Positions 33,110-60,505 of a stretch of 64,000 bases of DNA are shown piece by piece. Position 1 is the stretch's first letter, and every line of letters begins with the position of its first letter. The position numbers were made by a program, and so were the translations under genes. Below the pieces are notes generated by a model. It searched no databases. It was given only the letters and a program-made list of their open reading frames with translations, and was not told where the DNA came from. The stretch lies in the NCBI RefSeq assembly GCF_029227915.1, contig NC_079888.1, positions 4,103,001 through 4,167,000 on the forward strand. Direction: 5' to 3'. Source of the DNA: Hydractinia symbiolongicarpus. Taxonomy: Eukaryota; Cnidaria; Hydrozoa; Anthoathecata; Hydractiniidae.

Positions 33110-34558
<1,449 letters not shown>

Positions 34559-34568
34559 ATATCAATTT

Positions 34569-39300: not shown

Positions 39301-40999
39301 TAGTCTCAATTAATTGCGCACATTTAATGGACTGTGTTGTGTATGGATAATTTTTTTTCACTGTCTACTTCGCGGGGCACTTTTACTCTACTATCCAAGT
39401 CGGCTCTTATAACACGACCTGTGTGTTTTGTACTAATAAGACAAAAACTTCAGCAAAATTTTTGTTAAAAATGTAATTGACACGCTTTTGTTATGGTAAT
39501 AGGAGTTTGTTTGCCTCGTTTAATCTAAAAGCCTGCTTAAATATTGCTGCAGCCCACGTGAATTTATACTCAAGAAAGTATTTGTTGTTGTTTCAACCAC
39601 GTTGCTAAACTTTTTAACAGTAAGAAAGTAAAGTAACTACTTATGTCTTATATGAAATTATACTCAGAACGCATCCTGGCGTCGATCCAAAGGCCTATAG
39701 CTGTTTCCACGAAATCACGAATTGGGTGAATATATTTAAGAAACAAATTAGTTTTGTTTCAATCATGTCATTAGCCATCTTTAGAATAAATAAAATTGCC
39801 AAGTGAGCAATTTGAGAATTGAGATCGGGTTTTTTTCATTGGATATAAAGGGGTTCTGTGACTCTTAAATTTTCTTTTGTGTTTAACGTTATCTATTATT
39901 TTAAATCAATTATTACTATAAGTTGAGAAACATGACTCGTTGAATATAAATGTTTTCAGGTGGCCAGATTTCTCACCAATACGAATGCTATCACAGCCAG
40001 AATTAATTATGAATTAATTTAGAGCGAAGGGTAGTATAATAAGAGAAGTACTGTGGAATTTTAAAAATGATTCTAATGTTGACTTCAGGTTGTACACTAA
40101 ACAAGGTTTACAATAAATCAAACGGCAAAAAGGCATTGATTGATGCAATTTTATATATTATCATATTTTATGTATTTTCTGTTCCTTTGGGCAAAACGCT
40201 TGTCAACAATCCTCCATTAGATACATTTCTGTTCCCGTCATCATGCAATCACATAAAACACCACAATTTTTCATTTTAAATTTCTATCCCTTTCTGAATT
40301 AGTAATTCTTGCTATTAGCATTTTGGGGTGCATTTGTGGTAACTATGGCTAGTAATATCCGTATTCTGTCTGTGGGTGAAAACCAGGTCGTGCTAACCAC
40401 GCCCAAATAAGTGATCCATAAAAACACAGGCGGGAACTTACTTACTTACTTACTATACGGAAAAGATTTTTAGAATCCGTATTCTGTCTGCGCGCGTGAG
40501 AAAAAGTCATGTTACGGACAAACGAAATAGCAAATGCGATATATTTTTATCGACTATACTACGTCGGGTTTTTCCCCGCGAACCTGTGGGATTTTTGGCA
40601 CACCAAAGACTAGTATGGTCAAAATAATTATTTGCGAATGTGCACTTACACCATTTTTTTATCATTTTTATATTTGATTAAATGTTTTCACAGTACTAAG
40701 GTCTAAAAATGTATAATGTCATTAATGGTAATTAACTATTGTTTAATGAACGCAACCATTACTTTTAATATTGTGTTTTTTCATTTAAGTTACCTTGTTT
40801 TCGGCATATACTTTTGAAAGAGATCTTGTAGACCAGTTCCTTTCAATAATGTTTCTATGCAACCTTGTTCCCAGCGCCTCTTATTTCTATTTCGGCTCGC
40901 CGTCCCAGTATAATAAAAGACAACATGTGCTGGAAACGAGGTTGTTTTCAATGCCTTTTAAAAACAAATCAAGTATCAATAGCCTTGACTATTTCCTAA
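39301..40999. other. No recognisable gene; partial repeat
   Basis: The part at 40440-40620 resembles 39100-39240 ('AATCCGTATTCTGTCTG', 'GCGATATATTTTTATC'), so it is probably another copy of that interspersed family. Otherwise nothing is supported. Confidence 0.4.
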
Positions 41000-41345
41000 T
41001 AAAGTGTTTCTCCCGCATTTAAAAGGATACATTTAAACGATGTATATCGTTGTGTGTGCTGTGTCCAGCCATAAATCTAAACTGTATGTTGTTAATGTAA
41101 GCTTGGGAACGAATAAGATTTCGAACAATAGGCTTCAAAACTTTTATGTTCTGGAGCTTGGTGCCTCTGTAGTTTCCTTGATATGTTGCATTGCCGTTTC
41201 TTGCATAACAGTTTTTAATAAACGTGTCCTTCCAACGACTTTTCTTCATGGACGATTTGTTTGTCAAGTTGTATTATTGCATTACTATATCTCTGTCATC
41301 TGTCAACTGTATCGTCTTTTCCTTGCCATATCTTCTGGATAGTAA
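41000..41345 (-). pseudogene. LINE reverse transcriptase fragment
   Basis: The minus strand reads 'NYRGTKLQNIKVLKPIVRNL' and then 'INNIQFRFMAGHSTHNDI', matching the 'NYRGIKL...V..E..I...I......I...QFGFMPGxGTTDAI' segment common in LINE reverse transcriptases. Only this segment survives and it lacks the catalytic motifs. Confidence 0.6.
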
Positions 41346-41678
41346 CGGGAAGTTTTCCATGTAACAAATATAGCAGGGGCATTTAACTGCTACTCAGTTG
41401 TTCAGAGAGTTCTTATTCCAAGGAAACTCAACATTTAAAAGTCTTTGATAATGTTCCTTCTAAGCATGGAATATCGGAAACTAATGTTTTGTAACTAGAA
41501 ATAAACAAATGATCCGTACTTCTTTGAAAAGCACAAAATCCCTCTCCGTTGGCAAGAGTTTCCAATTCGAACAAATTGTCCCAACAACATTTGCAAATTG
41601 TAATATGTGCGCTCCAATAAAAGCACCTCAGCCTCTCCTAGCGAAAAGAGAGAAAGAACTCTATTCAGATCTGCTAAG

Positions 41679-41733
41679 CCACAATAAAGTCCTCGTTTCG
41701 ACAGCTACAGCTGTCATCGACGGGCAATGATCG
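41679..41733 (-). ncRNA. Degenerate hammerhead-like motif 3' of the Penelope-like element
   Basis: On the minus strand TCGATGA (consensus CTGATGA) is followed by a perfect 6-bp hairpin (GACAGC / GCTGTC) and GAAACGAGG. The position downstream of the GIY-YIG frame parallels the better motif at 7965-8035. The core has two mismatches, so it is probably inactive. Confidence 0.4.
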
Positions 41734-41916
41734 TAATCATCTTTGGCTATTTATTATTTGAGGATAATTAGAGGATCGAAATCAACCAATCAGATCACAG
41801 CGATTAAAGTAATTAACTTTTTCACGGACCCAGATGGAAGCAATGGATTGATTAAAATCTTTTCTTTTTTTCTAAAAGTTTTTGTTACGTTTGTCCCGAA
41901 CCATTTTGCACTTTTT

Positions 41917-43215
41917 CTAAATATTCGCTTTCCGAAGTGCAGGTAACCATATTTCTGGAAGTTGATAGGAAATACTATTGATGTGAGTATTTCTGTCTAT
42001 ACTATTTATGGTTTCTTTCACTTTTCTTGCTTTCCAACCAGACTCTCGGTCTATGATCTTTTTATTGTCCCAGTCAATAACATGATCATTCTTCCAGCTA
42101 TAGTCCGCAATCTCATTTTTGTCTGTATCTGCGTTGCGTACAGCTCTTTTGTGCTCTTGCACACGTTGTTTGAACATTCGTTTCGTTTCACCGACATAAA
42201 CAGCATCACAATCCTTACACGGGATTTCGTAGACAATTACATTGACTCTCTAGACATAATTTGTCTTTCGGATGCGACAGTATACTACGTAGCGTGCTTT
42301 TAGATTGAATCACTGGCTTTATGTTATAATCTTTCAATACCCGACGAAGTATGTTACTTGTCTCTGGTATATACGGCATACACACTGTAGCTACTGGTTC
42401 ATTTTCTGCATCCTCTCCGTCACTGTTCTTATCAGTTCTGTTCCTGATTTTCCTCTCAACCCTTTTAATTGTTTGTCTCAAATACCCATTTGCAAGTAAG
42501 GCGTTGTTTATATGAGATAACTCTTTCTTTCGGTCATTCTCTCCACTGACTACATTGACTGCTCTGTCCAGTAATGAAGACACCGCACTTTCTTTGCAGG
42601 ACAGTTGGTGATTGGATGTGTGGTTGAGATATTGATCAGTATGAGTTGGTTTGCGGTATACTGATACTGATAAGTTACCACCGTTTCGAGACACTAGAGT
42701 GTCTAAGAAAGGAAGCGTACCGTTCTTCTCGTGTTCAGTTGTAAATTGAATCTTCGGGTGCAAATTATTGATATGTTCATGAAATGCGTCTAGATGTGCT
42801 CTTTTAATTATTAAAAAGACGTCATCCACAAATCTTTTCCAAACTCTTGGAGCGTGATCTGCAGTTGTTAAGGCGTCTCATGAGCCTGCATATATATTTC
42901 AGCTACCACAGGAAGTTGGGCCATCCATAGCCACACCGTCAGTTTGCGTAAAGAAGTTACCGTCAAATAAATACCATGTTTTTGTAAGCACAACTTGGAC
43001 CGAGGACATTAGTTTGTCTATAGGGATGCGTGTTTTGTTCTCATACTCATCATCATTTAGCAGTAATTCCCTGATGATATATAATGTGTCCTTTATCGGT
43101 ACATTTGTGTACAGTGAAGTAACGTCAAATGATACCATACACTCGTAGCCTAGATTAAACTCGCTTGTTGATGACATGATAATATGTATATTATTCAATG
43201 ACAATGACTGAACAG
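41917..43215 (-). mobile_element. Penelope-like retroelement, 5'-truncated and frame-broken
   Basis: The minus-strand RT begins at about 43215. 'MVSFDVTSLYTNVPI' (motif A region) is followed by 'DGVAMDGPTSCGS' (remains of the GxxMGxPxS box). A frame change near 42855 leads to 'RVWKRFVDDVFLIIKRAH' (catalytic FVDD), 'TLPFLDTLVSRNG' and 'SVYRKPTHTDQYLN'. The last frame, 42177-41917, gives 'FKQRVQEHKRAVRNADTDKN' and 'HVIDWDNKKIIDRES', the GIY-YIG nuclease C-terminal half. The GIY and YIG boxes fall at a third frame break near 42200. Penelope-like elements use this RT-nuclease pair for target-primed insertion. Confidence 0.85.
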
Positions 43216-43559
43216 ATAAGTGGTAATATTTTTAAAATAAAGTCCTCGGTGGTTTTTTGTAAGAAGAAAACCTTTACTAAAAATTTAAATACCCTGTCTA
43301 AATTTTCTTATCTTTTGATATATCCTCCTAGATAATGCAAAACACTGGAACAGTAGTCACAGTAAGCACCTACTCACCCAGCACCCCTGATTGTAATGAA
43401 AGAAAATGCCAAACCATATAGTTAATGTGTGCGCAATTATCTGGAAAAAACATTCTATAAATTCTATTAGGTTATTCTTATGTCAATTGATTTCCGTCGC
43501 CGCTACGCTGGGCTGAATCTTTGAAATTGCCTGATGGAAGATAGAGATATACATATGTA

Positions 43560-43712
43560 TATGGTGGGCTCGAACCACCAACGGGGCTCGATCCTGTAGT
43601 GAGAGAAAAGGCAATTGCAAACTCGTCTCACTATCGGAACGATAGCTCAGTTGGCAGAGCAGTGGGGCGCTAACCCAATGTTCGCTGGTTCAAATTCCGC
43701 TCGGTCAGGTTT
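43560..43712. repeat. tRNA-derived sequences, possibly a SINE or pseudo-tRNA pair
   Basis: On the plus strand at 43636-43710, TAGCTCAGTTGG is a perfect A box and GGTTCAAATTCC is a near B box. The fold gives a 4-bp anticodon stem (TGGG/CCCA) with loop GCGCTAA, but the T stem and acceptor are mismatched. On the minus strand near 43563-43580 there is a perfect T arm (GGTGG/TTCGAGC/CCACC) without a D arm. A functional tRNA is unlikely. Confidence 0.45.
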
Positions 43713-44149
43713 TCACTTTCGCCGATAGAGATCACCTCCGCTTCTGAATATTGTATAATGTATATGTGCCCGGTGCTGTGTTCTACTGCTGTTGTTCTAC
43801 TACTGTTCTATAAATTGTATGATATGTAATACTACTGTTCTACTACTGTTCTATAAATTGTATAATGTATAATACTGTACCCAGAATACACACACCTTTT
43901 AATTTCTGCCAATTTAATGACCAATCTAAAGACCAATTATGTAGCTAGCAAACCAGCTAGGTACACAAAATAGTGCTTTGATTAGAGTGCCTTCTTTTTC
44001 TTAAGGAACCATAAACAAACAAACTTGATCTTGCTTTGCAATTTTTTTCCATCGTGGCTGGTAACCTAACTCATTCTTTGGGAAAAACAGGAGGCTAAAA
44101 ATAAGTTCCAAACGACACTTTGTGTGTCCATTTATAGTTTAAAGTTGCG

Positions 44150-44735
44150 GAAATAGTGCCTGTAGGTAAATAAGTGGATGTGTTTGTCATCTTTTAGCAA
44201 CACGCTTATTCCAATTTAGTGCGGAAGGTCTATCTAGGCTAAATTGTGACGGAAAACGGTACTATAGCTTGCCCCTCTAACCTATGAGTAAAGTTACACT
44301 TGCCCCATGCGCCCCTCATTCCTATAAAAAAGAATAAACACCCCTGCATTCGCATAGATGGCTTCAGTGTTGAACGGTGTCTTTTTATGTCAAATGCACC
44401 AATCTCCAGTCCAATAAGCGCATTTCTACTATGTATGGTTGTTGAAATAGTGCCTGCAGATAAATTAGTGCGTGCGGTTGTTATCTTTTAACAACACGTT
44501 TATTTAAATCAGGTCCAGAATGCATGTATAGGCTAAAATGTGACGAAAAACTGTACTATAACTTGCCCCTTTAACTTATAAGTCTAGTCACACGTGCCCC
44601 GTGCGTCCCGTCATTCCCCACAAAGGATAACGATAGGACAAACGACCCTGTATTCTGATGAACCGTGTCAGTGCTAAACAGTGTTTTTATGTCAAATGTA
44701 CCAATTTGTAGTCCGATACGCACCTTTGCCTCCCA
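44150..44735. repeat. Two tandem copies of a unit of about 294 bp
   Basis: The first copy, starting 'GAAATAGTGCCTGTAGGTAA' (about 44151), and the second, starting 'GAAATAGTGCCTGCAGATAA' (about 44445), remain alignable through 'ACTATAGCTTGCCCCTCTAA' / 'ACTATAACTTGCCCCTTTAA' and beyond. No coding potential. Confidence 0.75.
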
Positions 44736-45398
44736 ACCAACCCGTCCAGCAACTTATCGCGAGCGATTGTAATTATGGAAAAACAATAAAAAGTATAGCG
44801 TTTACATAAGTTATGAGTATAGAGTTGTATTTCGCCTCACAAGTTTGTAGCTTAGAATTCGTGGAGACGCTAAATAGTTTAGTATTTAAGGATGCGCAAC
44901 CTTGATTGCGTCCAACGAACAAAAGGTTTTCAAATTTGAGCCTCTATATTGGCTAAAACGCCCGTTAAAAGATAAAAAATGTTTGTCCTATGTAATGTGT
45001 GTAATGCCTCTTAAGTCAAAAAAGGATGATATAAACTATTATAGGCGGTACATAAATATTGGCAGTCATTTCTTCTTTTTACTTATTAATTTTTTCTTTT
45101 TATTTATTAATTTCTTCTAATAATCATTTTTATTTTTTATCTAGTCAGTTGCCCTTTCTTGAGCGTCAAGCAATAGTTAAAAGAGAATTCAAATCCTTAT
45201 CCCCTCCCCCTGTTTCCAGCTGTGATCATTCGGAAAATTGTTAGTTAATTTCTGTCGATTTAGTTCATTTAATTAGTCAAAACAAGACAGTCCCGACAAT
45301 TATCTTACTTAAAATTCAATTATTCTCATGAAAACGTGCTTTTTTCTGTATATGTCGTGACCTGTATTTGTAATTACAATTGCAGTTTAAAATAGACA
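44736..45398. other. Upstream region of gene B
   Basis: AT-rich DNA without a clear TATA or other promoter signal. A polypyrimidine-poor but valid acceptor 'ATTACAATTGCAG' ends at 45383, 15 bases before the gene B start codon. It could end a 5'-UTR intron or accept a spliced leader. Confidence 0.35.
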
Positions 45399-46127
45399 AT
45401 GGATCAATCTATTGCAAGCTTACTCTCCGTTAGAAAAGATGGTTCCCCAGGAAGAACATATTACCTTCATAGTTCGGACAAAGACTTGCTCATTGGAACC
45501 TCGTAAGTCAAAAAAGAATTTATTATTATTTAAACAACAGTCCTCATTTAACATACATGAGTAAAAAAACCGCAACCGCATTTTAATTGTAATTGTAATA
45601 AGCGTAATCTATCTACAACCCTGGACACGATATTTGTGGCCGTTTTTTGCTATTTCTCGAAATGGCACAACAGCATGCTTTGGTCAGTCCTTTGCATAAT
45701 AATCTCAGCCTCGTGTATGGTCTTACTAAAACCCTTTTAATTTCACAATGACTAAAAGCTTTTGTGTTTTTATGTTTTGTTTTGAATAATTGTTGGTACG
45801 AGTAAAAAAATTATGATTACCTTTCTTCCATAGTCCTAAAGCGAACATCCAGATAAGCGAGGCAACATATGAAAATATTGACACATACCATTGTAATTTG
45901 TCGTTAGAAGATAACGCGGTAATTTTTTCTCATTTTTATTTTCTAATTTTTATCCGTCATTTTACTATCCAATTGATGTAATTCTTCCATTTAGTATATT
46001 TTACGTATTACCACGGAAATTTTTCCAACGTTTATCAATGGAGATGAAGTCGCGTGTGCAACACCATTGAAACATGGCGATGTGATTTCAGTAGGAGATA
46101 AGAAGTTTAAATTCTTTTATAGCAGAG
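45399..46127 (+). CDS. Gene B exons 1-3: FHA domain
   Basis: The start ATG follows an acceptor by 15 bases. Residues read 'KDLLIGTSPKANIQI' (position of the FHA strand with Gly), 'YHCNLSLEDNAYILRI' (the SxxH-like strand, here TYHC), 'FPTFINGDEV' (NG turn) and 'LKHGDVISVGDKKFKFFY' (GD-I-x-G end). This is closest in style to the Ki-67/NIFK-like FHA domains with 'PTxxNG' and 'LxHGD'. The usual GR is replaced by GT, so phosphopeptide binding needs checking. Confidence 0.8.
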
Positions 46128-49100
46128 GTATACATTGCCGCTAGTATATTCAATTTAAAATGCGTGGGTTAACAGGGAAGTATCAGTTGGAGAACTGAAT
46201 TTTAAGAACCAACTGATAATTTCTTTTTTAACTCTAAATGAGCGATTTTTTACCATTTTCTTTTTCAAGCAGATGTATGCTTTGATACTAAGCCATCTAT
46301 CATGCATGCTTTTACTATTTATTACTCCCTTATCTATGAAGTATATCTACACAGTTCAAACATTAATATTTAAATTTAATAAGTAAATATTAAATAAGAA
46401 CTAAAATTAAGGATAAAAAACCTTTGGAACTAGATCCATTCGTCAGGATTGTTATAAAAAACCGTTTTCCACTGGGAGTTACTTTCAGCAAAAAAACGAA
46501 AATACGTACTTTAATCCCATACACCCCATGTGTACTACAGTATGCATCTTTGCACGACTTATGCTTTAAAATTTAATATGTGACTGTGTTCTTTAGATAA
46601 AAAATTTGATATACCTCTCGATGAATTGAAATATCTAATGGATACGTTAGAACCGGAGATACACATGATCATGTCGGGAAAGGTAAAAGTTGGAGGAACA
46701 TTTAGAGTAGCATGCTATGTTGTGCATTTGTGTAATTTGTGTCATTATTTGAAATTTTTAGACTGCGACTGATAGATATACACTGTACATAAATGGTGGC
46801 GATGATAGACGTAAGCGTTATATATAAAATTTCATGATGAAAAGTTCATTCTCCAAGATCTTGTTGATAAACATTTCTTTAATGTTAGACATTTTCGTGT
46901 TTCTGTGTAACTGTTATCTGTTCAGTTTTGCAAACCTCTATAAACCACACATCTATCGTTATACTGTTTTATGTCATGCTTTACTACATCATATAGTTTT
47001 TTATATGTTGATATAAGTCATATGAAGGCTAACTGAATCTTCTAGACTCTCTGGATACCAACAATGGTTTGAACTACTTCTCAGATGGGATGGTAGAATA
47101 TGTTACTGGCAAATTAATCACTTGGTTTTCTAGCCCCAAGGTAGTTGTTTTGTATTCCTGGTTGCGCAGTTGTTTTTGTCTCGATTGCATTTGACAATCA
47201 TACTAGTCTGCATTATCTATTTGAGACCGAAAGGTAGTTAAAAAATTCATGTGATGTGTAAAAAAAATACTTGTTTTAGTTCTTTGACGGTGTTATGAAA
47301 GTCTTGTTGCCAGACACCCTGGTTTTAGTGTTAAGCAAGATTCAAAACATCAGTTTTAAAAAGGTAATCTGTGTTACGGTATTTATAAAGCTTACAATTA
47401 ATAGTTACCTAGATAATTAATAATTTTGTTCGATGATTTTGTAGGCGTTGACCCTAACTTTAGATGGAGAAAGCTTCGCAAGTGCTTTATCTGTAGAAGA
47501 AAATGAAGATAATTCATCCCTTGGTAAGCAAACATAAGGCTATAAACATAATTATAAACAGGATTTTTTTACCAAATTTAAATTTCACATTATATTTACG
47601 TTCTGTTGTTAGTGTCACTTACTACAACTGAAAAACAGTCCATGTCAGAAACAACAAATGCAACACCGGTGGTGAGTACTTTTGTTGATTATGTGATTTT
47701 TTATAAGCATGCTCTTAAAAAAAATTGTTCAATAATGGTATTTATTACTACAGCACTGCCCAAGCTCCCCAGACGTACTAATTGGAAAAGACGGGATTGA
47801 CTTTGATTCCCCGATCGTTGTTAGTAAGGTACAATTCATTTTAATATGCATCTTATCCCTTATACGCAAACTAAAATGCAAGAAAAAGTTTGTTGACGCA
47901 GGATTTTGAACACCGCTAACCAATGTTCTTTAGTTCCTTTTTTTTCATGTACCTTGAAATTGTGAGAAGAATTTTGTCATTTGGCACAGAAAGTAAATTT
48001 TTTATATTTTCAGAGTAAGTCAATAAATGAATATACCACACGAAAAGAAAGACAATGATCCCTTTACTTACATTTTTGGAACAATATCAATACTTTTTAT
48101 TTTGTTGCAAATTTTGGGTGCACACTCCTGTCCTTTTTAAGTGTCATTGTGGTTATGCGAACTAATTTTATCATAGGGAATTGAGCCAAAGACAAATCGC
48201 ATAAAATCAAAAGACGAAGAGAGAAAAAGGAAAAAAAGAAAAGCTGAGGAGGAGATTGAGGATCTAAGAAAACGGTTGCGTAGGGCTGAAAGGGCGGCAG
48301 AGAAGGAGTTTATGGACGTAAGCAGCGAAAAAGAAATTTGTCACGAGGAAGCAGAAGGTGAGGAAAGGGTGAAGAATGACCTTAAGTATAAGGAAAAGAA
48401 ACTTAAGGAAAAAAGAAAAAGGGAAAGGTTGAGAAAAAAAGTTATAGCAAATTTAGAATTGTACTTGCCTTCACACGATACCGTCAAGCCAAGTCATGTT
48501 AAGAAGAAGAGAAAGTTTGAAATGAAATGTATTGAGTGCGGTGAGGTCATGAAAAGCGATAGTTTGGCTGGTCATTTAGTTACTATACATAAGTATAGCA
48601 GTGACACAGCTCGCATGAAAGAAAGTGAACTCAGAGTAATGTTTTTATGGGCCTCAAAAGAAAAGCATGGGAGTGAGAAGCCTTTGCCATGTGTGATCTG
48701 CAATAAATGGCATATGCGGCTAAGAAACCATTTAAGGTATAAGCACAAGGATTTGCAGAATGAAGACATCAATAAAATTGTGGAAAGTGCAAGGAAAGAG
48801 TACTGGTGCACAGCTAAACTTGCTGAAACCGCGAAGAAAGGAGGAGTAAAACATTTAGAACCTGAAAATGATGAGATCAGCAAAAGAAGCAAAGACCGAT
48901 TTCAGGCCAATTTATATAAAGGACCAGCTGCCTCTTATGCTCCGAAAAATTCTTTTATTTTGACAGAATTCGATAGGCAATTATGGAATTTAAAGGAAAA
49001 AGACTTTTTTAATTTTTATTATAAAGACCAAGCATTTCTGATGAAGGCCTTCGAAGAAGATTTAGTGGCAAATGGTAGTTCAGAACGGCAAGCAAAACAA

Positions 49101-52100
49101 CATTGCCAATATGTTGAATACATATGGGATATAGTTGACCCCAGTAGAACAATGTTCCCTCTTCATGCATTTTCTAACCCAATTTGTATTGAGGACAACT
49201 ACCATCGATTGTCTCTGGAACTTGTTGGAAAAGGAGGGGTTGAGGCAAATACATTGCGCACTAGATTTTCTTCCTTGCGGCATTTTCTGAAGTTTCTGAG
49301 ACGTCGTCATATCTATGCAGGCCTTACAAGAGAGCATTTTCGTCTTCTGGAGGAATCAATCGAAGACTGGAATATTAGATTACGCCCTCTTATAAAGCAA
49401 AGGAAGGTCAATCTGAGACGTTTGAAGACACGGCACTTGTTAACGGTTGAGCACATGATAAAGTATGGACGCTCACCATTTACGCAAGATATTGTTGCGA
49501 AGCTCAACAATTATAGTACACGTGGCAAAAGCAAGTATACCATTGGCTTTTGTTTGAAAGTACGTGACTACGTAATGACCAATATTTGTATTATGAATGG
49601 TTTAAGAGCCTCGAATCTCATAGAATTGCTAGTGAGTGATGTGAAGGAGGCCAGTCGTCACGATGATTATCCTGGACACTGGGTAATCATCAACTCTAAT
49701 TACAAGACGTCGACGATATATGGGGAGAAGGTTATTGCTATACCAGATGCGATCTTTAATCATCTGAAAATATACATGGACCATTTACGTCCTTTGTTTG
49801 AAAATGCATCATCAAAATATCTATTTTTGCCGTCATCAAATGAAGATAAAATGTCTCACGGTGTTGTTGGCAGTGCTTTAACAAGCAGCTTTAAAGATGC
49901 CGAAGTTTTTAGCGAGAAAGAATATCAACGAGTTTGTCCAACCAGAATTCGATGTGCATGCGCAACGTTTGCATGTAACCTTGAAGGCATGGACATTGGA
50001 TTCTTCGCTAAGAACTTCATGAAAAACAAAGAGGAAACAACACAGAGGCATTACAATCTGCATTCAAATGTAAAGCATGCCTTGAGTCTTGCAATGATGG
50101 TCGGCGATGGGTTTCAAGTAGGAGGTGAACGTATCACCATTAAACAAAGTGAAAGAGAAGATTTGACAAATCTACTCTTAAAAAAATCCCGACCTTCAGA
50201 ACTGCCTTCAAAAGAAAAAGTGCTAGAGTGGATAAAGTTGAGAAACTCTGACTTGACAGCAATGGAAATGAACGCCATTGACCAGATATTGGAAGAGCTG
50301 TCCGACCCATCCACAATATCTGCAGAAAAAACAGCGAGTTCGTTCTATGGCGATGTAAGTGTTTGATCATTATAGGTTTAAGTAAAAAAAATTGGAAAAT
50401 TTTGGATTATAATTTAAACTTATACTTTAGCAAACGGCTTTTTTTATTTTTGTTTTAGAATTGCATTGTTACTTGAAAAACTTACTGCTTTAATTATAGT
50501 GTCTTGAAAATGAAAATGATGGCAATGTTGAGGATGGCGGTGGAATTGGTGATGATGAAGTTAGAAAGGTAAGTGTGATCAACTTTCTTGGTTTGGTTGA
50601 GAATGGCAATCTTAAAGAAGTAAACAAACTGTAGCCTTCAAGATCTATTTACGCATACATCTTTGTTTATTAGATCGAAAATTTCTGTCCACCTACACCT
50701 AGTATAAAAAGCAGTAAATCTATATGTAGAGAAGTAAGTATTATAGCTTTAATAATTCTTTAGTATTTATGTAAATTACTAGTGCTAAAACTAGTTTTGA
50801 AAGAGACAACTATTGCTCACTAGTTACGTTATGTTTAATAATTTTTTACCGAAAAAAAAGGGAAGAAAAACAAGAAAATCTTTTTGTTTAAATTGCACTA
50901 AGACTACGTTTACATGTAGGCGGGATGAAATTTCATCCCGGGATGACTTTCGTCCCGGGATGAAAGCTTTTTTGTTTACATCTCTATTTCATCCCGGGGC
51001 GAGTTTTGAATAATTTCATCCCGGGATGAAATTATTCAAAACCATTGCGCATAAAGTTCAGAAATAAAGGTAGTTTCATCCCGGGATGAAATATTTTTTC
51101 TGTTTACATGGAGATTTGAGAATAGTTTCATCCCGGGTTGAAATTTCATCTCGGTCATTTCGACCGGGATGAACTCGCCCCGGTATGAGATTTCATCCCG
51201 CCTAAAACTTGTAAACAGTATAAAGACTTTGGCCAGAGACAGGGATGACCTCATCCCGGGACGAGTTTTATCCCGGGATGAGATTTCCCATGTAAACACC
51301 CCCTAATTTAAGTCATTTCTAGTTCTTCCACGAAGATTTATTTTCATGCAAACAAATTTTTGCAAAAATTAACTAACTTATGTAGCATTAATCCTTATTT
51401 ACCTGTCCAAACAGCTGCATTATTTACTCAATATTTTACGTATACAAATTTTCTTTACTATTTCTGGAAAATATTGACCAAGACGTGTGAAAATTATGTC
51501 AAATTATTATCTAAATTTCTGAGTCAGTAGAAATTTCTAGTTAAAATAGTATAAAAACAAGAAAAATCGGCTTCTACAAAATTTCAAAAGTAATATTTTA
51601 TATAGCGGACATTGAAAATGTGCTGAATTAGCCGAGTATACCCACTGTATAAAGTATTTATTGTGATTTAGCAAGTTAAAGTTACTGAAAGTACAATGAA
51701 AACAAGGTCGACGATAAGTATGGAGAATACAGCTTCGGTATGTGCTTTGCTTTGTAGAAATGCCATTTTTTTTAAATATAAACATTGGAATTATTATCTG
51801 GTTGTAATAAAGGGCGTTTGATGATATATGTCCTAATAACAATTCATACCGACGTAAAATTTCCATTGTACATTTGATATGAAACATGCTTGCCCCCTTA
51901 TTGTCCTGTCTTGCTAGCTTGCGAAAAAATGTTAAACTTAATTCAATTTTCCCAGAACAAAAAGTAACGTGATCACCTCTAATCATTGTCTTGTTTCCTC
52001 CCTGAATAGAATAAGCAGGATCATGCCTGTTCCAGGCCTTTATTCAGTCTATTTCGTTTTGGTATTACATTAAGTAAAAGAAAGGATTTAGCAAATTTTA

Positions 52101-55100
52101 TTCCTTATCTGCTGTTTAAAGAATACTTTTGCTTCTAAAAACCTTCATTTTAAGGGGTCGTGTATTTCAGGATTTTAGAAAGAAAGTTTTGTTTATGACA
52201 TAAGAACTAATTTTAGTGAGTCTAATCATTAGGACAACATTAAATTATTCCTTGAATATGGTGGTAGAAAAAAAGTTAGTTAAAATGCATCTTAGAGTTA
52301 ATAGCTTATGTAAATTTAGTCCGGATTTATAAGTATTGGAGAAGTTGATATGGAAGATGAACAGAAGCAAGCGAGAAGATTTGTAGAACTCGGCATTGAC
52401 CAAGACGGATTTGAAAAAGTTTTTATTAACGACGACATTGGTATGATAGTTTAGCTTGTGTCAAAGATTAGTTTAATACAGTAGAATATTATTACACGTT
52501 ACGATTATTATTTTTAGCTTTTTTTTAACTTCATACCAAGCCACTATGTGATAATTAATTTTTTTTAGGTTTTGGAATACTTTCAACCAAAAGTTTTAAG
52601 AAAGGGGAGTTCCTTCTTCAGTACAGAGGGCAGTTACTCTCCAAAGACGAAGCTGAGAAGAACGAAATGGGATACGAAGAGGATGGTTTCGGCTGTTTTC
52701 TCTACTTTTTTGATCATAAAAAGAACGAGAGAAAAGAAACACTATGGTAATCAATGATAGATTTAATTCGTTAAAGAAAAAACATTATATGCTGTACTAT
52801 ACAAAATATGCTACGCTTTACTATACATTATGTGCTTTACTTAATGCTTCTAATCAGATTTCTGTGAGACAAATTGAATTAAATGTTTTAAATTTTCACG
52901 GAAAACAAAACAAAAAAACAAACAGTATAAAAATGGCTAAGGTATAAAAACCTTTTTTTGTCCAAAACAAACAAACTGCCTCGGCATCTCAGGGATTTGA
53001 AACCAAATCGTTGCATTTGTCTCTTTGAAATATGTTATGTCTCTTTAATTTAGTGTTGACGCAACCAATACGGAATCTATTTGCAAATATGTCAATGATT
53101 CTGCGTTTCCGAACTGTGTTATGAATAAAGTCATCGTCAGAAGTTCGCCTTTTTTGTGTCTCTTTGCCGTCAAAGACATACCATCGGGTTTAGAATTGCG
53201 GTATGACTATAAGGATAGAAAAAATCTCTGGTGGAGAAAAAAGGTAACTTTAATTTGATTTATAACATTGGTTAAAACTTCTTTCAAATGAAGGATATTT
53301 TTAATAAAGGATAAATACCGGTAATAGTAACGAAACCTCCCGATATAAAGCTTAATAAGAACGATGTTGATCAAGCATCGAGCCTTGAAGAACACGCTTT
53401 GTGAATTAACTGTGGTTCTTCTTTAAAAAAAACACTTAACTTTCGGCATAAATAATGTACATATTACAATATCTTCCTTAAAGCTTTGCGTAGCTTAATT
53501 ATAAATGCCCAAAATAAAAACTTATATAACTAAAATTCAAAAATAATTTCAACTGGCCAGCTGTTGCACTAAATATGCTTTAAGATACTTATCTTTTAAA
53601 ATCTAACCTGCTTACTATGTAGATACTTGCAAAACAAAACATATAAGAGATGTAGATAATTAATGCTCATTTGATTATGAAAGTCTTTATCTAATTTTCA
53701 GTCGTGTCTGCTACAATTTTTTTAAAGAATTAAATTTTTTTTCAGGAGGAATGTAAATTTCCATTGAAAAAGACAGAGTTAGCTAATGCTCCATCCACGG
53801 TTCGTATTACTGATTTCAACAATTACTTAAATACTAGTCGGTGGCCCGTGGAAAAATCCACGGGTTCGCCCGTCCTTTTTATACCGCATTGCGTGCGTCT
53901 CGCTACTTGCGGTACCATTTTGCGTGACAGACAGACAGACGTATACGGGTATTATAATATAGACTAGCCGTTAACCCGTGGAAACATCCACGGGGTCGCC
54001 CGTCCTTTATATATCGCATTTCGTGTTTCCGCCACGGGACTCGCCTACCGCGGACAGACAGACTAAATACGGCTGTTATTAAAGAGATGTTAAATATCTT
54101 AATTCACCTACCTTCGTGTTGATGTACTATTTTGGAGCCCTCTATTTTACGCGAACTCTAGGCCAAGCCAAAATTTTAACGATAACAGAAATCTCAGGCC
54201 ATTTTTCCATTGCAACCCAGACTTAGTTCAATGCAATCGTGAACTGGTAAACAGCAATAAGCGCTCCTTAAAACTTTTCTATTTTGTACATTTTAAATTT
54301 CAGTGCATGCATGTGTGTTTTATAATATTTAATTGTTACTTGCTTAATTTTAAGGATGAGTCAAATGATGCGTACAATCCAGAGTCCCAAAATGTGAGCG
54401 AAGACCTTGACTCTGAGAACGACGAGGAGCTTGTTAAGGTGTTTTTCCCCGCACTTTTTTCTCTTCATTTTTTTCTTTTGTTTACAAAATTAAAATAGTT
54501 CGGTGGTAATTTGTAAACTTGGAGGCTGTGCATATGGAGGCGAGTTATGGATCGCGCATATGCAGGTTCGGTTGACTTGGCTAACTCGGCATCTTGCTAT
54601 TGTTCAGAAAACCTTATAAAAAACATGTGTTCAAAAGAGAAGCGAGTCAGCCCGTCTTTCCAAGAAATATTTTGAAAAATTTATAACCACCCTAAAATAA
54701 TAATTAAAAACTAACTTGAAAAAAGTTTTTGTAGAAATTTATAGATTAAAACTGTCTAACTTTATTATAATATCCATAGCCGTTACGGAAACAAAAGAAG
54801 AGAGAACGCCTGGATGACGAAGATATGGCCAAACCTGACGATTTTGTTCCGTCCAGAAGATTTGGGAGAAAAACATACTTGGCCCTAACAAATATTTTTC
54901 GTGATATCGTCGTTCGTGCTGATTACGCAAACGAGTATAATATGAAGTCGTTCGCTATTTCAGAGCTACATGACAAATTGGCAGTATCTGACCATCCGTG
55001 GCTTGACAACATAAAGAAAATGAACGTCAATGATTTGAAGTACTGTGTGCATACGCTGCGCAATAAATTTAGAAGTGCAAACGCTAAAACGTTGAGAAAA

Positions 55101-55157
55101 TGGGGAAAATGGTGCGAGGATGTTGAATCATTTTATAGGCAACAACAAACCGTTTAA
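45399..55157 (+). CDS. Gene B: FHA / zinc finger / tyrosine recombinase / SET protein, 20 exons
   Basis: Exons by GT-AG and phase: 45399-45502, 45834-45918, 45995-46127, 46597-46682, 46762-46810, 47046-47140, 47280-47363, 47445-47523, 47613-47671, 47754-47828, 48177-50354, 50500-50568, 50674-50733, 51672-51737, 52320-52440, 52569-52746, 53054-53243, 53746-53799, 54355-54438, 54780-55157. All join in frame: 4227 nt, about 1408 residues and a stop. Domains: FHA (about 20-107), basic coiled-coil-like segment (about 290-380), two C2H2-like fingers (401-475), Crypton-like tyrosine recombinase (about 700-920), SET (1115-1237), helical C-terminus (1284-1408). The FHA domain should bind phosphothreonine; the SET domain suggests lysine methylation; the recombinase core is typical of transposons. 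The only weak donor is at 53800 (ACG/GTTCGT). A host gene made from a Crypton, or a many-intron transposon, are the alternatives. Confidence 0.75.
48177..50354 (+). CDS. Gene B exon 11: zinc fingers and tyrosine recombinase
   Basis: One 2178-base exon, flanked by short-exon regions, as expected for a captured transposon frame. It opens with a lysine/glutamate-rich helix, then 'CIECGEVMKSDSLAGHLVTI' with a following H, and 'CVICNKWHMRLRNHLRYKH', two C2H2-like fingers. The recombinase core has Arg in 'NGLRASNL' (residue 760), Lys in 'NSNYKTSTIYG' (793), second Arg in 'PTRIRCACATFA' (875) and the nucleophile Tyr in 'TQRHYNLHS' (909, codon 50052-50054). The first His of the HxxR box is Thr here (872), as tolerated in Crypton-type enzymes. 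Residues R-K-R-Y are all present, so catalysis is conceivable. Confidence 0.8.
50898..51307. mobile_element. MITE built of CATCCCGGGATG palindromes, in gene B intron 13
   Basis: About 410 bases bounded by 'CGTTTACATG' on the left and 'CATGTAAACA' on the right contain ten or so CATCCCGGG/CCCGGGATG half-sites. Many form full palindromes such as TTTCATCCCGGGATGAAA, at 50931, 51026 and 51073. GC content is far above the surrounding DNA. It has no coding frame and lies between exons 13 and 14 of gene B. Confidence 0.7.
52569..53243 (+). CDS. Gene B exons 16-17: SET domain
   Basis: Exon 16 codes 'GFGILSTKSFKKGEFLLQYR' (the GxG SAM motif and following strand) and 'GCFLYFFDH'. Exon 17 continues '(C)VDATNTESICKYVNDSAF' and 'PNCVMNKVIVR', then 'FAVKDIPSGLELRYDYKDRK'. 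Order and spacing match KMT5A (SET8/PR-Set7), the H4K20 monomethylase. The catalytic Tyr box ELxYDY is kept, but the SAM-binding NH pair is ND here, while gene A keeps NH. This could weaken activity. Confidence 0.8.
53834..54075 (+). repeat. Tandem pair of a short interspersed repeat with a perfect hairpin
   Basis: Two copies of about 130 bases start ACTAGTCGGTGGCCCGTGG (53834) and ACTAGCCGTTAACCCGTGG (53965). Each carries CCCGTGGAAA(A/C)ATCCACGGG, a 9-10 bp hairpin, then CGCCCGTCCTT and GACAGACAGAC. It follows gene B exon 18 directly and lies in intron 18. Related pieces occur at 39046-39300 and near 11210. Confidence 0.7.
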
Positions 55158-56376
55158 AGGTGTATACCAATGATCTTTCGTGAAGACAATTTTTTTACGG
55201 TACCTTCCTGTTATTTTAATATTTATTTCTAGTTGTTACTTTAACGTGAGTAATTTTAAAGATAGGTTCTAGTTCTTCCTTTATTTTGCAAAGGATTTGG
55301 TGCGCAGAACGATTTGCGAAAGATAGATCTTGCAAAGTTTGATGAAATTTGAAACTTGAGTGACTCGATAAAATAGCTAATGTTTGCAAAAAAAATTGAC
55401 ATCATGGAAATGCGTTAGAATCCATATACACAAAAACCCCGGAATAATCATCATAATCAGTGCTTCTTGTTTATAGATGGGGCGGCTTACGAAAATTTGA
55501 GGAATTTACATGGCACATATTCAAAAGCGTTGGGTGCTAATTCGAATCACTAGAGCCGGCCTCCTCTTACAACCGCAATCACGGCGATCTATTGTTTTTA
55601 TTTAGCAAAAAGCGAAAGCCAGCGCGCATATTTTGTACGTCTGGAAGTGGAAGTTGTTTCAACTCTTGCGTCGAGACGCTGTCGTGACACCAATCAAAAT
55701 AAACAAAAATTCCCTAAATCTTAATTTAACATTGATCGCTGTGATCGCGCGTGTAAGTGGGGGCCGCCCTTTACTTTATTTGACGGCTGATGTTATTTTA
55801 GTGGTGTTGAATTTTCCATTTAACAGTTAATGGATAAATCAAAGTATTCTAGAAAAATGCCTTTTCTTTTTCTTCGTTGCGAGGATTATCAGAACACGTT
55901 TTAATGTCGACTTATGTCGTTGATGGCTTAATGTTTTTTCTGCAGCGGTAAAATTACAAGCGCTCACCAAAAAAGAGAATTACTTTGCAAAAAACGTGCA
56001 TGTGTGTGTGTGGCCATTTACAGTAAGATTTGGCCATTTACAGTGAGATTTGGCCATTTGTAGTGAGATTTGGCCATTTGCATGTTCAGAGTACCAACAG
56101 GAAAGGCTGGGGAAATGTTTATTGATAATCTTAGCATTTGGTTGCAACAATTCAACGCCAATACAAAACTTAATGCAATAGCGATTAAAGTGTTCATGAT
56201 ACTGCCGACGTTGTTCCAAAGCAAAAGACCATCTAGCTTGTTTAACCAGGAGATTGGAGCAATGGCAAAGTGGGAACTTTGAGGTTATAATGCGGGAAGT
56301 AAGGCAAATACAGCGAAAATTTGGTACATAAAAAAACCAGAGGACAGCGAATGACATTTCGAGAATTTTTTCGAAA
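55158..56376. other. No gene; short 18-20 bp array at 56027-56085
   Basis: Downstream of gene B there is no supported frame. At 56027-56085 'TTTGGCCATTTACAGTGAGA' and close variants repeat four times. No clear AATAAA signal was seen just after the gene B stop. Confidence 0.5.
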
Positions 56377-58743
56377 TTGGTCATGGAAGGAAAAATATCG
56401 GCAGCATTGAAATTTTTAGATAAAGAGTCTTCCTCTGGAGTTCTAAAATATACGCCTGAAATTTTGCAAGACCTCAAAACTAAGCTTCCGGATGCGGCAG
56501 AAGTTCAGGAAGACAGTCTCCTTCATGGTCCATTGCAAAACATACCGCCCTACTTCTTCGACGCAATTGACGAAACGCACATCTTTAATGTTGCACTACG
56601 AACGAAGGGATCTGCAGGTTCGAGTGGAATGGATTCTGATTCATATCGCCAAATTTTATGTTCCAGGTCCTTCGGAAGTCAGTGCAAAACACTTCATGAA
56701 GAAATTGCAAATTTCACCAGAAACGAAGCCGCACGCTCTTCCAACCCGGACTTGTTGGATAGTTATGTGTCATGTCGTTTAATAGCTCTTGATAAGAACC
56801 CTAGAGTGGGGGAAGTTTTACGGAGGATTGTTGGAAAGACAATTAATCACCATTGTAGACAGGAGATAAAGGAATCCGCGGGTCCTCTTCAAACATGTGC
56901 AGGGCATGGCGCAGAAGCAGAGGCAGCCATACATGTCATGAGACTTATCTTCCAGTAGGATGAAAGTGACGGTGTACTACTCATCGATGCTCAAAATGCG
57001 TTCAATTGTTTAAACGGAGCAGTTGGTTTACATAACATTCGAATAACTTGCCCAATTTTATCGATGTATTTGATTAACACATACTGTCAACCAGCGACCT
57101 TATTTGTTTCGGGCGGAGATATTATTTTCTCAAAAGAGGGGACGAATCAAGGAGACCCCCTTGCAATGCCGTGGTACTCCTTGAGTACAGTGACAATTAT
57201 CGATGCATTGAGACAGTGTGAACCATCCATTAAGCAAGTTTGGCTTGCAGATGACGCCAGTGCAGCTGGTAATTTACGTTCACTGCAGATGTGGTACAAA
57301 CAACTCGCGAAAATTACGGTTACTATGTTAATCAATCAAAATGCTGGCTCATTGTCAAATCTGACGACTTAGCAACAGAAGCAGCTACAATATTCGGTGA
57401 ATCAGTGAATATTACTACTCGTGGAAAAAGGCACCTTGGTTCCTGTATCGGATCAGAGGACTATCGACGAGGAGATTGTGGAGATTTGGTCGAAAGGTGG
57501 ACTAAAGACCTTTAAACATTGTGTTAAATCGCCGACACCCAACCGCAGGCTGCTTATGCAGCTTTTACGAAAGGATGCAAATCCAAATTTTCTTATTTCA
57601 TCCGGACAATCTAAGGATTTGAGCAATTCACTGAACTACTGACTCGTTGCTTAGTGACAAATTCCTACCCGCCCTGTGCGAAGTATTTAACAATCATAGA
57701 GACTTGCTCTCCTTGAATCCATCAGAAGGAGGACTCGGAATTAGCACCATTTCAAAAATAGCAACCGAACAACACCAAGCCTCCGTTAAAATTACATCAT
57801 GTCAATGCAATTTTAAGTCAGAAAAATGTAATATCTGAAACCGATGGTAACCGAAAATCGGTAAGCGAATTAAAAGCAGAAGTAAATTCAAAACGTACGA
57901 TGTCGAAAAAGATGAGGTTAATGCCATTCACGAAAAACTACCCGATAACTTAAAATCACTGATAGATCAGGCATACGACAAAGGAGCTAGTGGATGGTTG
58001 AATGCTTTACCCATTAAGGAGCAGAACCTAGACCTTAACAAAGAGGAATTTCGAGACGCCCTTCGCTTAAGGTACAATGCGCCACTCAAAAACTTACCAA
58101 CATATTGTGCGCGTGGCGAAAGATTTAATGAATGTCACGCAATGAATTGCAAGACGGATGGATTTGTAGTAAACAGATACGACAACATTAGAGATTTTTT
58201 GGCAGTGTGTTTAAATAAAGTCTGCAATGACGTAGAAACAGAACCGCGTTTAATGCCTATCACATATTAGAAATTTTCCTTGAAAACTGCCAACACCAGC
58301 GACGATGATAGGTTGGATGTTAAAGAGAAAGGTTTTTGGAGGAAGGGAGAAACTGCATTTTTCGATGTTAGAGTCACGCACGTTCATTCAGAATCCTTCA
58401 GAAACCTTGATTCCCAAAAACAATTTAGAAGACACGAAGAAGCCAATAAATGCGAGTACGTTGAACGAGTACTGGACGTTGAGCATGCCTGTTTCACGCC
58501 ACTGGTCTTTGGGACAAATGGTGGTGTTGGTGACGAATGCGGACGTTTTCTAGCTAGCTTTGCAGCAAAAATCTCTGCTAAAACTGATGACAATTACGCA
58601 GCCATAGTGACATGGTTACGTACACGACTCTTTATGGAACTAACACGTGCCTCTTTGCTTTGTTTAAAAGGGTCAAGGACTCCATTCAGATCGTACAATA
58701 CTGAGAAGACCCGTTTGGACAATGTTGTTAGTGGCTTAGGCTA
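56377..58743 (+). mobile_element. RLE-type non-LTR retrotransposon, 5'-truncated and frame-broken
   Basis: The plus strand shows 'GSAGSSGMDSDSYRQILCS', 'GVLLIDAQNAFNCLNG' (RT motif A), 'EGTNQGDPLAMPWYSL' (motif B) and 'QVWLADDASAAG' (motif C, ADD). After frame breaks near 56957, 57372 and 57515 come 'EEFRDALRLRYN', 'CARGERFNECHAMNCKTDGF' (zinc knuckle), then 'DDDRLDVKEKGFWRKGE' with 'FFDVRVTH' (RLE core). It differs from the USP-carrying family by sequence and by ending after the RLE ('LLCLKGSRTPF'). It resembles R2/HERO-type elements; the clade needs a tree. Confidence 0.8.
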
Positions 58744-58744
58744 G

Positions 58745-60269
58745 CTTTTGTACTTAAGGTGGCTAAAGATTTATTTCCCACAACCTGGTTTGTGGTTTCA
58801 AGTTTCTATACGCCACGCGATTTGTTCCCTTTCTGATAATCAAGAGTCGTGTGCTTTCACTGTTTTCTCGACTGAGTCCTTCCTGTGCTTCCCTCAGAAC
58901 ACCAAGCTTTTATTTTTATCTAGTGTTTAATCCGTGTATAATTGTGTGTGTGTGGAAAAGGATGGGGAAAGGGGGGGAGGGGATAGAAGGGGGTGTAAAT
59001 GAATAAACATATATTGAGAATACACCTCCACGCTTTTTTATTGTCATGATCAACTTGGGATCGGACCAGAATCTTGTGTTTGCTTGCTCAATTAGCCTGG
59101 TAAATTGACATTGTCGTTGTATGTAACATGAACTTTCACACAAGGAAAATCTTGGAAGCAATTGCTGTTGTTTAAATTTCTGTAATTTGTCCATTTATTT
59201 TTATTTTTTTATTTACTCACTTCGGGATCGGTGTTGGACAAGTTGCTTCGTGTTTTGAAGAATTTGACCTTATGTTGCTTACAGCTTGTTACTTACATAA
59301 AAATGCGTGTATTTCCAGAACAATAAATATAATACCTCATCGGGGAATAAAAAAGTAGGGGGTAAAGTTAATCGGTGAAAATTTCACTCACCATTACATA
59401 GAATTAATTAGTTTCCCCAGAATAAAATTGGGTCTCAATAAGGAGAAATATATCTACTTCCTTGCTATATTTTCCCGTCTGTAATCATTAAAATTCATTA
59501 GTTAGTATGAAAACTAAGTCGATTAAAACAAAATTTAAACATTTCAATACAAAATACGCCGTTAGTAAATTACTTGTAAAATTTTTAGTCGAGGATTAAG
59601 GAAATCGGGGAAAAATTAGTCACCAACCCTTAAATTTAGTCACTTTTCCCCGGTTTCTTTTCCTTGATAAGGTATATTTCCAAATGAAATATTTTAAATT
59701 TTATCCACTATTTGGTGGTCTAACGAAATTTTCTCAGCCAAAAGATTTTCTAAATATGCATAAATACACATTTTCCGAATTATTTCTTTCATATTTCGCA
59801 GTTTTTTCCAACTCTTTTAAGGAAAATGAATGTGATTTTAGAAAACCTTACCTGAAGTTTAAAAAGGACAGAAATTTTCAAAATCATGCAGCAAATAAAT
59901 AACCTGTTACGACGATTTATTTAATTTTATTACACTTGACCACTGCTTCAAACCAGACGTATTATGAGAAGTCGAAAATTTAGCAGACTTTGACCGTGAC
60001 AATTACACCACCGAAACAGTAATTCCCAAAGTCCAAATAGGCTTATTTAGCCATGCTTAGTCCAAAAACAATAACATAAAATCATAAATCTAAAGTTTCA
60101 AACATATAATTTTAAAAACGTGTAATAATTCCAGAATAAATTAAGATTGGAATAATTTAAAATCAGAATAAATTAGTGAATCCATACACACAATAAAAAA
60201 ATAGCGAAAATATGCATTTAAATATCTTAATCACGGAGAAATGACCTAAAATAGACAAAAGAGTAATTA
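58745..60269. other. No recognisable gene
   Basis: AT-rich DNA. The stretch 59340-59660 contains inverted pieces of 'GGGGAAA(A)...TTTCCCC' type that may belong to a small repeat. The 72-codon frame at 59684-59902 shows no family features. Confidence 0.4.
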
Positions 60270-60282
60270 GGAAATTATACTA

Positions 60283-60420
60283 CCATTTACGCGTCAATTG
60301 CGAAGAGGAATTATACTACCATAATTTCTATACTACCATTTCGGGAATTATACTACCATTTTCGGGAATTATACTACCACCCGGGAATTATACTACCTTT
60401 TCGGGAATTATACTACCACC
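60283..60420. repeat. Tandem array of GGGAATTATACTACC
   Basis: Six or seven copies of the 15-mer or its close variants occur at about 20-base spacing, ending directly at an (AAT)n tract. The same 15-mer forms inverted repeats at 34569-35145. Confidence 0.8.

Positions 60421-60421
<1 letters not shown>

Positions 60422-60504
<83 letters not shown>
60422..60504. repeat. (AAT)n microsatellite
   Basis: About 28 TAA units between two different short tandem arrays. Confidence 0.95.

Positions 60505-60505
<1 letters not shown>

What the first reader, a model, noticed from the sequence alone, without database searches (positions are those of the whole stretch)
45399..55157. Intact gene fusing FHA, C2H2 fingers, a Crypton-like tyrosine recombinase and a KMT5A-like SET domain
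Twenty exons chosen only from splice signals all join in phase to about 1408 codons without a stop. The order FHA, zinc fingers, recombinase (R760, K793, R875, Y909), SET and helical C-terminus is one I do not recognise as a described protein. A site-specific recombinase linked to a phospho-reader and a histone methylase could be a domesticated Crypton acting on chromatin. It could equally be an intron-rich transposon carrying its own chromatin writer. In a repeat-dense window its open state suggests selection or youth.
Basis: partly seen in the sequence, partly recalled or inferred. Interest (0 to 1): 0.88.

Follow-up and report, generated by a model that had tools for sequence, protein, structure and literature searches.

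The report
Giant hydroid transposon encoding recombinase-methyltransferase fusion
In the genome of the hydroid Hydractinia, the gene that joins a phosphoprotein-reading domain, zinc fingers, a DNA recombinase and a histone-methylase-like domain sits inside a 26-kilobase repeated DNA unit that looks like a large mobile element living in AAT-repeat DNA, so it is more likely the engine of a jumping element than an ordinary animal gene.

Summary
Twenty GT-AG exons give an open 1408-codon frame with FHA, two C2H2-type fingers, a tyrosine recombinase (YR), a KMT5A-like SET and a conserved C-terminal domain. Homology supports one gene: exons 4-7 and exon 20 match the two ends of a Hydra YR protein, and two Hydractinia paralogues also fuse YR and SET. 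No RNA was searched; the database model seen is truncated.

The new result is the context. The gene lies in a 25.9-kb unit (34558-60421) that recurs almost identically (0.14-0.29% substitutions by part) 14.7 Mb away with different flanks; a decayed third copy lies on another contig. Both twins abut (AAT)n on both sides. The right end is an iteron array (6, 5 and 5 copies) running into (AAT)n at the same point in 3 of 3 copies. A distant YR-SET family has the same design: iteron arrays before (AAT)n at 5 of 5 places, four of them 3' of near-equal YR copies.

Best reading: a large, intron-rich YR mobile element resident in AAT microsatellites, carrying its own chromatin writer. Activity and mechanism are inferred.

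The parts
34558..60421 (+). Whole repeated unit (putative mobile element), 25,864 bp
   Evidence: Twin at C14:18825360-18852112 (26,753 bp), 0.14-0.29% substitutions by part, different flanks; third copy on C3 with the same right end
34232..34557 (+). Left flanking (AAT)n microsatellite
   Evidence: Sequence; (AAT)n also at the left of the twin
60422..60505 (+). Right flanking (AAT)n microsatellite
   Evidence: Sequence; (AAT)n also at the right of the twin and of the C3 copy
34569..34583 (-). Inverted iteron GGTAGTATAATTCCC at the left end
   Evidence: same left end in the twin
34742..34756 (+). Forward iteron GGGAATTATACTACC near the left end
   Evidence: D2
35125..35139 (+). Forward iteron GGGAATTATACTACC near the left end
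   Evidence: D2
60271..60419 (+). Six tandem iterons (GGAATTATACTACCA-like) at the right end
   Evidence: D1; with up to 1 mismatch 6 here, 5 in the twin, 5 on C3
45399..55157 (+). Gene: 20 exons, 1408 codons, FHA / exon 4-7 domain / ZnF / YR / SET / C-terminal domain
   Evidence: intact twin
45399..46127 (+). Exons 1-3: FHA domain
   Evidence: Pfam PF00498 1.3e-7; Ki-67 FHA 1.2e-5
46597..47363 (+). Exons 4-7: family domain shared with Hydra P0007/P0010 (aa 81-160); a similar stretch follows SET in the ORFs at L004 and L032
48177..50354 (+). Exon 11: long helical stretch, two C2H2-type fingers and the whole YR
48528..48746 (+). Two C2H2-type zinc fingers
   Evidence: Invariant Cys/His columns in 10 of 10 proteins; no C2H2 model at E <= 1
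49503..50057 (+). YR catalytic domain; R477, K510, R592, Y626 of exon 11 kept; T589 and N613 at the two histidine positions
52569..53243 (+). Exons 16-17: KMT5A-like SET domain
54780..55157 (+). Exon 20: C-terminal domain shared with Hydra P0007 and Hydractinia P0005 and P0006
   Evidence: helical nature judged by eye, no structure run

Best explanation
The gene is the enzyme gene of a ~26-kb DNA mobile element of Hydractinia symbiolongicarpus that sits in (AAT)n microsatellites. SHOWN by sequence: a discrete unit with twin copies in different flanks, the same right end in three of three copies, iterons at the ends, and a second, distant YR-SET family with the same right-end design. INFERRED: the YR (with the fingers in front of it) binds the terminal iterons, joins the ends through an excised, probably circular, DNA form, and inserts it into AAT repeats. 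Copies keep introns, so movement is through DNA and not through mRNA. The SET domain, brought there by the recombinase, methylates a histone (an H4K20-type mark, by resemblance to KMT5A) or a partner protein at the donor or target site, and the FHA docks on a phosphorylated chromatin or DNA-damage protein. This could help the element enter or persist in repeat chromatin.
For: Unit boundaries: homology between the two C14 copies starts at (AAT)n|TTATATC and stops at ACCACCG|TAATAAT, with different flanks. The third copy, on C3, ends at the same base and is followed by (AAT)n and another flank. Iterons at both ends. YR family in the genome: 53 match rows (176 candidates, 62 scored, so a lower bound), including groups of near-equal copies on different contigs, e.g. 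four rows with almost the same score on C2, C4 and C6 (twice), each with the same companion row. Two of these four were compared at DNA level: 99.2% identical over the first 6.4 kb through exons and introns, matching the YR / C-terminal / SET protein P0005, and diverging after the (AAT)n. Iteron search: 22 matches against 2 in the backwards control, in 5 clusters, one 3' of each of these four YR copies and one without a YR match nearby; 5 of 5 clusters run into (AAT)n. The two families' iterons are related (GAATTATaCtACC / GAATTATcCcACC). YR fold with R, K, R and Y kept. Precedent: crustacean nimaviruses with telomere-specific YRs, typically with a C2H2 domain, insert into a telomeric microsatellite (PMC10871703; abstract and passages seen).
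Against: Only two near-identical copies plus one decayed copy of this very family were found, and the left end was seen in 2 of 3 copies (the C3 left end was not at the place predicted). The predicted inverted iteron at the left end of the second family was not found with up to 1 mismatch. The HxxR histidine is Thr in 9 of 9 aligned YRs and the second histidine is Asn here, against His in 7 of 9 and Tyr in 1 of 9, so catalysis may be weak or changed; the structure model is of low confidence over that stretch. No empty site, target duplication, circle or transcript was seen. The unit also holds what look like decayed retroelement pieces (41920-43231 with GIY-YIG; RT-like by eye at 56332-57512). 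The SET-writer and FHA roles rest on resemblance alone.
Confidence: 0.72

Rival explanations
1. Segmental duplication: recombination between (AAT)n arrays copied a 26-kb host block; the YR-SET gene is an ordinary, transposon-derived host gene.
For: Same chromosome and same orientation, both ends in microsatellites; only two near-identical copies.
Against: A third copy on C3 shares the exact right end; a distant YR-SET family has the same iteron/(AAT)n right end at five places; iteron arrays exactly at the breakpoints are not expected of random exchange.
Confidence: 0.15
2. Domesticated YR: a host chromatin regulator in which the recombinase serves as a DNA-binding module guiding FHA and SET.
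For: Twenty exons; few protein-database relatives (8 hits); histidine positions changed; many Crypton-derived animal genes are transcriptional regulators (PMC3212892, abstract).
Against: R, K, R and Y are kept, whereas the DUF3504 genes all lost the tyrosine and the second arginine (PMC3212892, passage); multi-copy dispersal of relatives; exons no more conserved than introns between the twins.
Confidence: 0.08
3. The unit is mobile, but the YR-SET protein is cargo: some other enzyme moves it.
For: The gene is in the middle of the unit; another multi-copy SET ORF group ends at (AAT)n with no YR match in the 10 kb fetched at each of two places, although on C1 a YR row lies about 16 kb 5' on the same strand, a link not tested.
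Against: No other intact enzyme gene was noticed among the unit's ORFs; only five of them were run against Pfam and spliced genes could be missed. Four of five second-family end arrays lie 7-8 kb 3' of a YR gene.
Confidence: 0.12

Closest known systems
Crypton DNA transposons (CryptonA/F/S/I)
   Same: Encode a tyrosine recombinase, move as DNA, can contain introns (introns recalled)
   Different: Animal Cryptons in PMC3212892 have no C-terminal domain and no terminal repeats (section 8); here a ~26-kb unit with FHA, C2H2 and SET fusions, terminal iterons and (AAT)n flanks
YR-carrying endogenous nimaviruses of crustaceans
   Same: YR with C2H2 domain and insertion into a specific microsatellite (PMC10871703, abstract and passages)
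   Different: Those are large viral genomes in (TAACC)n; no virus gene was noticed here, and the YR here is fused to SET and FHA
Starship giant transposons of fungi (recalled, not tested)
   Same: Tens of kilobases, one YR gene per element
   Different: Fungal; the YR gene lies at one end; no SET fusion recalled
SETMAR (SET domain + mariner transposase; recalled)
   Same: Histone-methylase-like SET fused to a mobile-element recombinase
   Different: A single domesticated primate gene with a DDE/D transposase; here the fusion occurs in multi-copy YR families
KMT5A / SETD8
   Same: Closest solved SET domain, 7.6e-22; the YDY and GxG motifs are kept in that alignment
   Different: The human NHS reads NDS here; linked to YR, fingers and FHA

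Membership tests
Tyrosine recombinase superfamily | YR fold with N-terminal core-binding and catalytic domains | tested here: met
Tyrosine recombinase superfamily | Catalytic R, K, R, Y | tested here: met
   R477, K510, R592 and Y626 in 9 of 9 aligned proteins with letters there (P0010 is a gap)
Tyrosine recombinase superfamily | Histidine of HxxR and the later H/W | tested here: not met
   T589 in 9 of 9; N613 here, His in 7 of 9, Tyr in 1 of 9
Crypton | Match to a Crypton-derived family model (DUF3504) | tested here: inconclusive
   No such model among matches at E <= 1, but autonomous Crypton YRs were not compared
Crypton | YR tree placing it inside CryptonA | not tested
   No Crypton reference sequences were at hand
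Crypton | Animal type: no C-terminal domain, no terminal repeats | tested here: not met
   C-terminal SET and further domain, terminal iterons; definition from PMC3212892 section 8
DNA mobile element | Several copies with the same ends in different flanks | tested here: met
   Right end 3 of 3, left end 2 of 3 copies
DNA mobile element | Empty sites or target-site duplication | tested here: inconclusive
   Flanks are (AAT)n, which hides duplications; no empty allele available
KMT5A-type SET methyltransferase | SET domain closest to KMT5A | tested here: met
   the best 14 of 60 rows shown (114 matched) are KMT5A/SETD8 (SET8)
KMT5A-type SET methyltransferase | Monomethylates H4K20 | not testable with these tools
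   Needs an enzyme assay; NHS is NDS here and in P0005, P0006 and P0011
FHA | FHA model above the curated cut-off | tested here: met
   32.3 bits against 20.7

The most novel reading that the evidence does not exclude
A previously undescribed group of large animal mobile elements that insert into AAT microsatellites by a tyrosine recombinase covalently joined to a histone methyltransferase, so that the enzyme that cuts and joins DNA also writes the chromatin mark at the insertion site; the order of SET and C-terminal domain after the recombinase differs between families.
Probability: 0.5. Interest if true: 0.9.

Novelty: new variant of a known kind. Interest (0 to 1): 0.8.

Why it matters
Mobile elements are usually thought to be silenced by host chromatin. 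An element that carries a histone-methylase-like domain fused to its recombinase would write chromatin itself, and it would do so at a defined repeat target. The iterons, the (AAT)n target and the intact proteins make this directly testable in a laboratory animal model. It also shows that an intron-rich 'domesticated-looking' animal gene can be a young transposon gene. In the listings of my searches of the held PMC library no title or abstract start joined these features (some searches showed 12 of 19, 12 of 19 and 12 of 27 papers; subscription papers and Repbase not covered).

Tried and rejected
Domesticated low-copy gene: first favoured because the protein search found few relatives (8), dropped after the genome search showed dispersed near-equal copies.

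Profile search with alignment A2 scored only the candidates sharing most words and gave 5 hits, two of them new. A search with an FHA+SET chimera gave 2 hits, neither a Hydractinia protein holding these exons (length range about 258-822 aa). IMG/VR gave no relative from the two peptide patterns used. BFVD gave no match at E <= 0.001; the best was a phage integrase at 1.2e-3. The PDB profile search gave two weak matches, a XerC-like recombinase at 0.057 and a zinc finger at 0.44. No structure of exon 20 was run (alignment only). The codon-preference test was weak. Synonymous/nonsynonymous counts (4:4) are too few to judge selection.

Predictions that failed: the left end of the C3 copy was not at the calculated place; the inverted iteron of the second family was not found with up to 1 mismatch. 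The C14:18783 kb row of that family matched only about 0.5 kb of the downstream DNA compared, and no iteron array was found around it, only one site with 3 mismatches 16 kb away. Never answered: the genome-wide search for this family's own iteron, for its left end, its right end and the SET exon as DNA.
Full report

Is it one gene? No RNA could be searched. Three lines of homology support one chain. A Hydra vulgaris YR protein (P0007), and the shorter P0010 that stops before the YR, carry, ahead of the fingers, the domain of exons 4-7 (scores 74 and 80; best of 1000 shuffles 51 and 59). P0007 also carries, behind the YR, the domain of exon 20 (105; best shuffle 65). Less good in the same call: exons 6-8 alone score 52, reached by 1 of 1000 shuffles; exons 4-8 show nothing against P0005 (364 of 1000); the linker between YR and SET shows little against P0006 (40 of 1000). 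Two Hydractinia proteins, P0005 and P0006, join YR (by alignment; Pfam only 0.0056 and 0.046), this C-terminal domain and SET (1.5e-10 and 2.9e-12) in one model, with SET last instead of before the C-terminal domain. In the genome the P0005-type exons lie in order with introns. FHA has no counterpart in the relatives seen; its link rests on splice phase and on its position directly before exon 4. Against one gene: the database model seen (P0001, 887 aa, representative of a 7-member cluster) starts in exon 6 and stops just after exon 12.

What the gene sits in. The window is G000:C14:4103001-4167000 of a 480.9-Mb genome; P0001's contig has the same length as C14 (24,932,500) and is named Hydractinia symbiolongicarpus. 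A SET match of nearly equal score pointed to a second place on C14. Comparing 144 kb around the window with 140 kb around that place showed one long shared block, window about 34436-60510, and, among matches of at least 1,200 bp, only one other of 1.2 kb. At both places the block begins and ends at (AAT)n. Trimmed to the iteron junctions the unit is 25,864 bp here and 26,753 bp there, with substitutions of 0.19% in exons, 0.20% in introns, 0.14% left and 0.29% right of the gene. The twin's gene is also open over 1408 codons. The species' heterozygosity is reported as 1.33% (PMC11067881, passages), and the flanks differ, so I do not read the twins as two haplotypes of one place; an assembly error is not excluded.

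The ends. The left end reads (AAT)n then TTATATCAATTTGGTAGTATAATTCCCC. The right end has six copies of GAATTATACTACC (five exact, one with a mismatch) in 150 bp, the last followed by ACCG and (AAT)n; the twin and the C3 copy have five each (three exact). The left terminal copy is inverted, and two more forward copies lie within 600 bp. A third copy of the YR, 99% and 94% identical in two pieces with one in-frame stop, lies on C3. Its right end, fetched separately, stops at the same base and is followed by (AAT)51 and a different flank. Its left end was not at the predicted place.

The family. Exon 11 matches 53 rows in the genome, a lower bound (62 of 176 candidates scored). Several rows form groups with nearly equal scores on different contigs: one group of four on C2, C4 and C6 (two), and others with rows on C1 (two), C4, C9, C10, C13 and C14. 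Of the first group I compared two copies (of four): 99.2% identical over the first 6.4 kb through exons and introns, they match the P0005 protein and end in tandem copies of a GTCTGAATTATCCCACC iteron, then (AAT)n, then diverge. A genome search for this iteron gave 22 matches with at most one mismatch (2 for the backwards control), in five clusters: one 3' of each of the four YR copies and one on C3 without a YR match nearby. With up to two mismatches the four clusters hold seven copies each and the solo cluster three. All five clusters run into (AAT)n. The two families' YRs are 38% identical over the aligned part, yet their iterons share GAATTATnCnACC and their right ends share the same layout. 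A further multi-copy group (L004-L006) joins SET to a stretch like the exon 4-7 domain; two of three were compared and they also stop being alike at (AAT)n.

How it most likely works. The YR is the natural candidate for the enzyme that moves the unit. It keeps the two arginines, the lysine and the tyrosine; the HxxR histidine is threonine in 9 of 9 aligned proteins and the second histidine is asparagine here. Joining the right array to the inverted left copy would place two inverted iterons around a spacer, as at a YR crossover site; this is inference. Copies retain introns, so an RNA intermediate is unlikely. Insertion in AAT repeats parallels YR-bearing endogenous nimaviruses, which insert into host microsatellites or 28S rDNA and whose telomere-associated YRs typically carry a C2H2 domain (PMC10871703; abstract and passages). 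What SET and FHA do is open; a writer and reader acting at the donor or target site is the simplest guess.

Comparison with what is known. It is a tyrosine-recombinase element by fold, and a DNA mobile element by its copies and ends. It does not fit the published animal Cryptons in terminal repeats or C-terminal domains (PMC3212892 section 8), but no tree was built, so the relation of the YR to Cryptons is open. The DUF3504 genes derived from Cryptons lost the tyrosine and the second arginine (PMC3212892, passage); this one kept them. Literature searches for the combination listed no matching paper (listings only).

Verdict. The fusion is real at sequence level and is probably a protein of a young, large mobile element rather than a host gene. 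It is a striking variant of YR transposons: a recombinase joined to a histone-methylase-like domain, in units tied to AAT microsatellites.

Noticed in passing
window 50917-51303 (intron 13): Palindromic CCCGGGATGAAA-rich insertion with inverted arms, MITE-like.
   Followed up: partly
window 53833-54025 (intron 18): Two 63-bp copies, 86% alike, of a CCCGTGGAAAAATCCACGGG repeat; the twin has 130 bp more here.
   Followed up: partly
window 41920-43231, minus strand: Decayed Penelope-like retroelement (by eye), with GIY-YIG (PF01541), inside the unit.
   Followed up: partly
window 56332-58741: Broken ORFs, partly reverse-transcriptase-like by eye (no Pfam match for the three tested), inside the unit; the twin carries 159 bp more at 56960.
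   Followed up: partly
window 45697 (intron 1): The twin carries a 696-bp insertion here that the window copy lacks.
   Followed up: no
G000, 112 SET matches: SET domains form several near-identical multi-copy groups across contigs, suggesting that SET is common cargo of Hydractinia mobile elements; some are KMT5A-like.
   Followed up: partly
L011 8093-8485 (C14:4175156): Another SET ORF with the VNDS motif 8 kb beyond the window.
   Followed up: no
L039 (C3:10426550-10427000): A solo right end: three iterons of the second family (up to two mismatches) before (AAT)46, no YR match nearby.
   Followed up: partly
P0005 residues 1-130: N-terminus looks like an OB fold (by eye) in place of the FHA of the window protein; N-terminal modules seem to be swapped between families.
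   Followed up: no
window 957-2126 and 2793-4277: Ubiquitin-hydrolase fragment (PF00443) on the minus strand and a broken LINE with RVT_1 and a sub-threshold endonuclease match.
   Followed up: no
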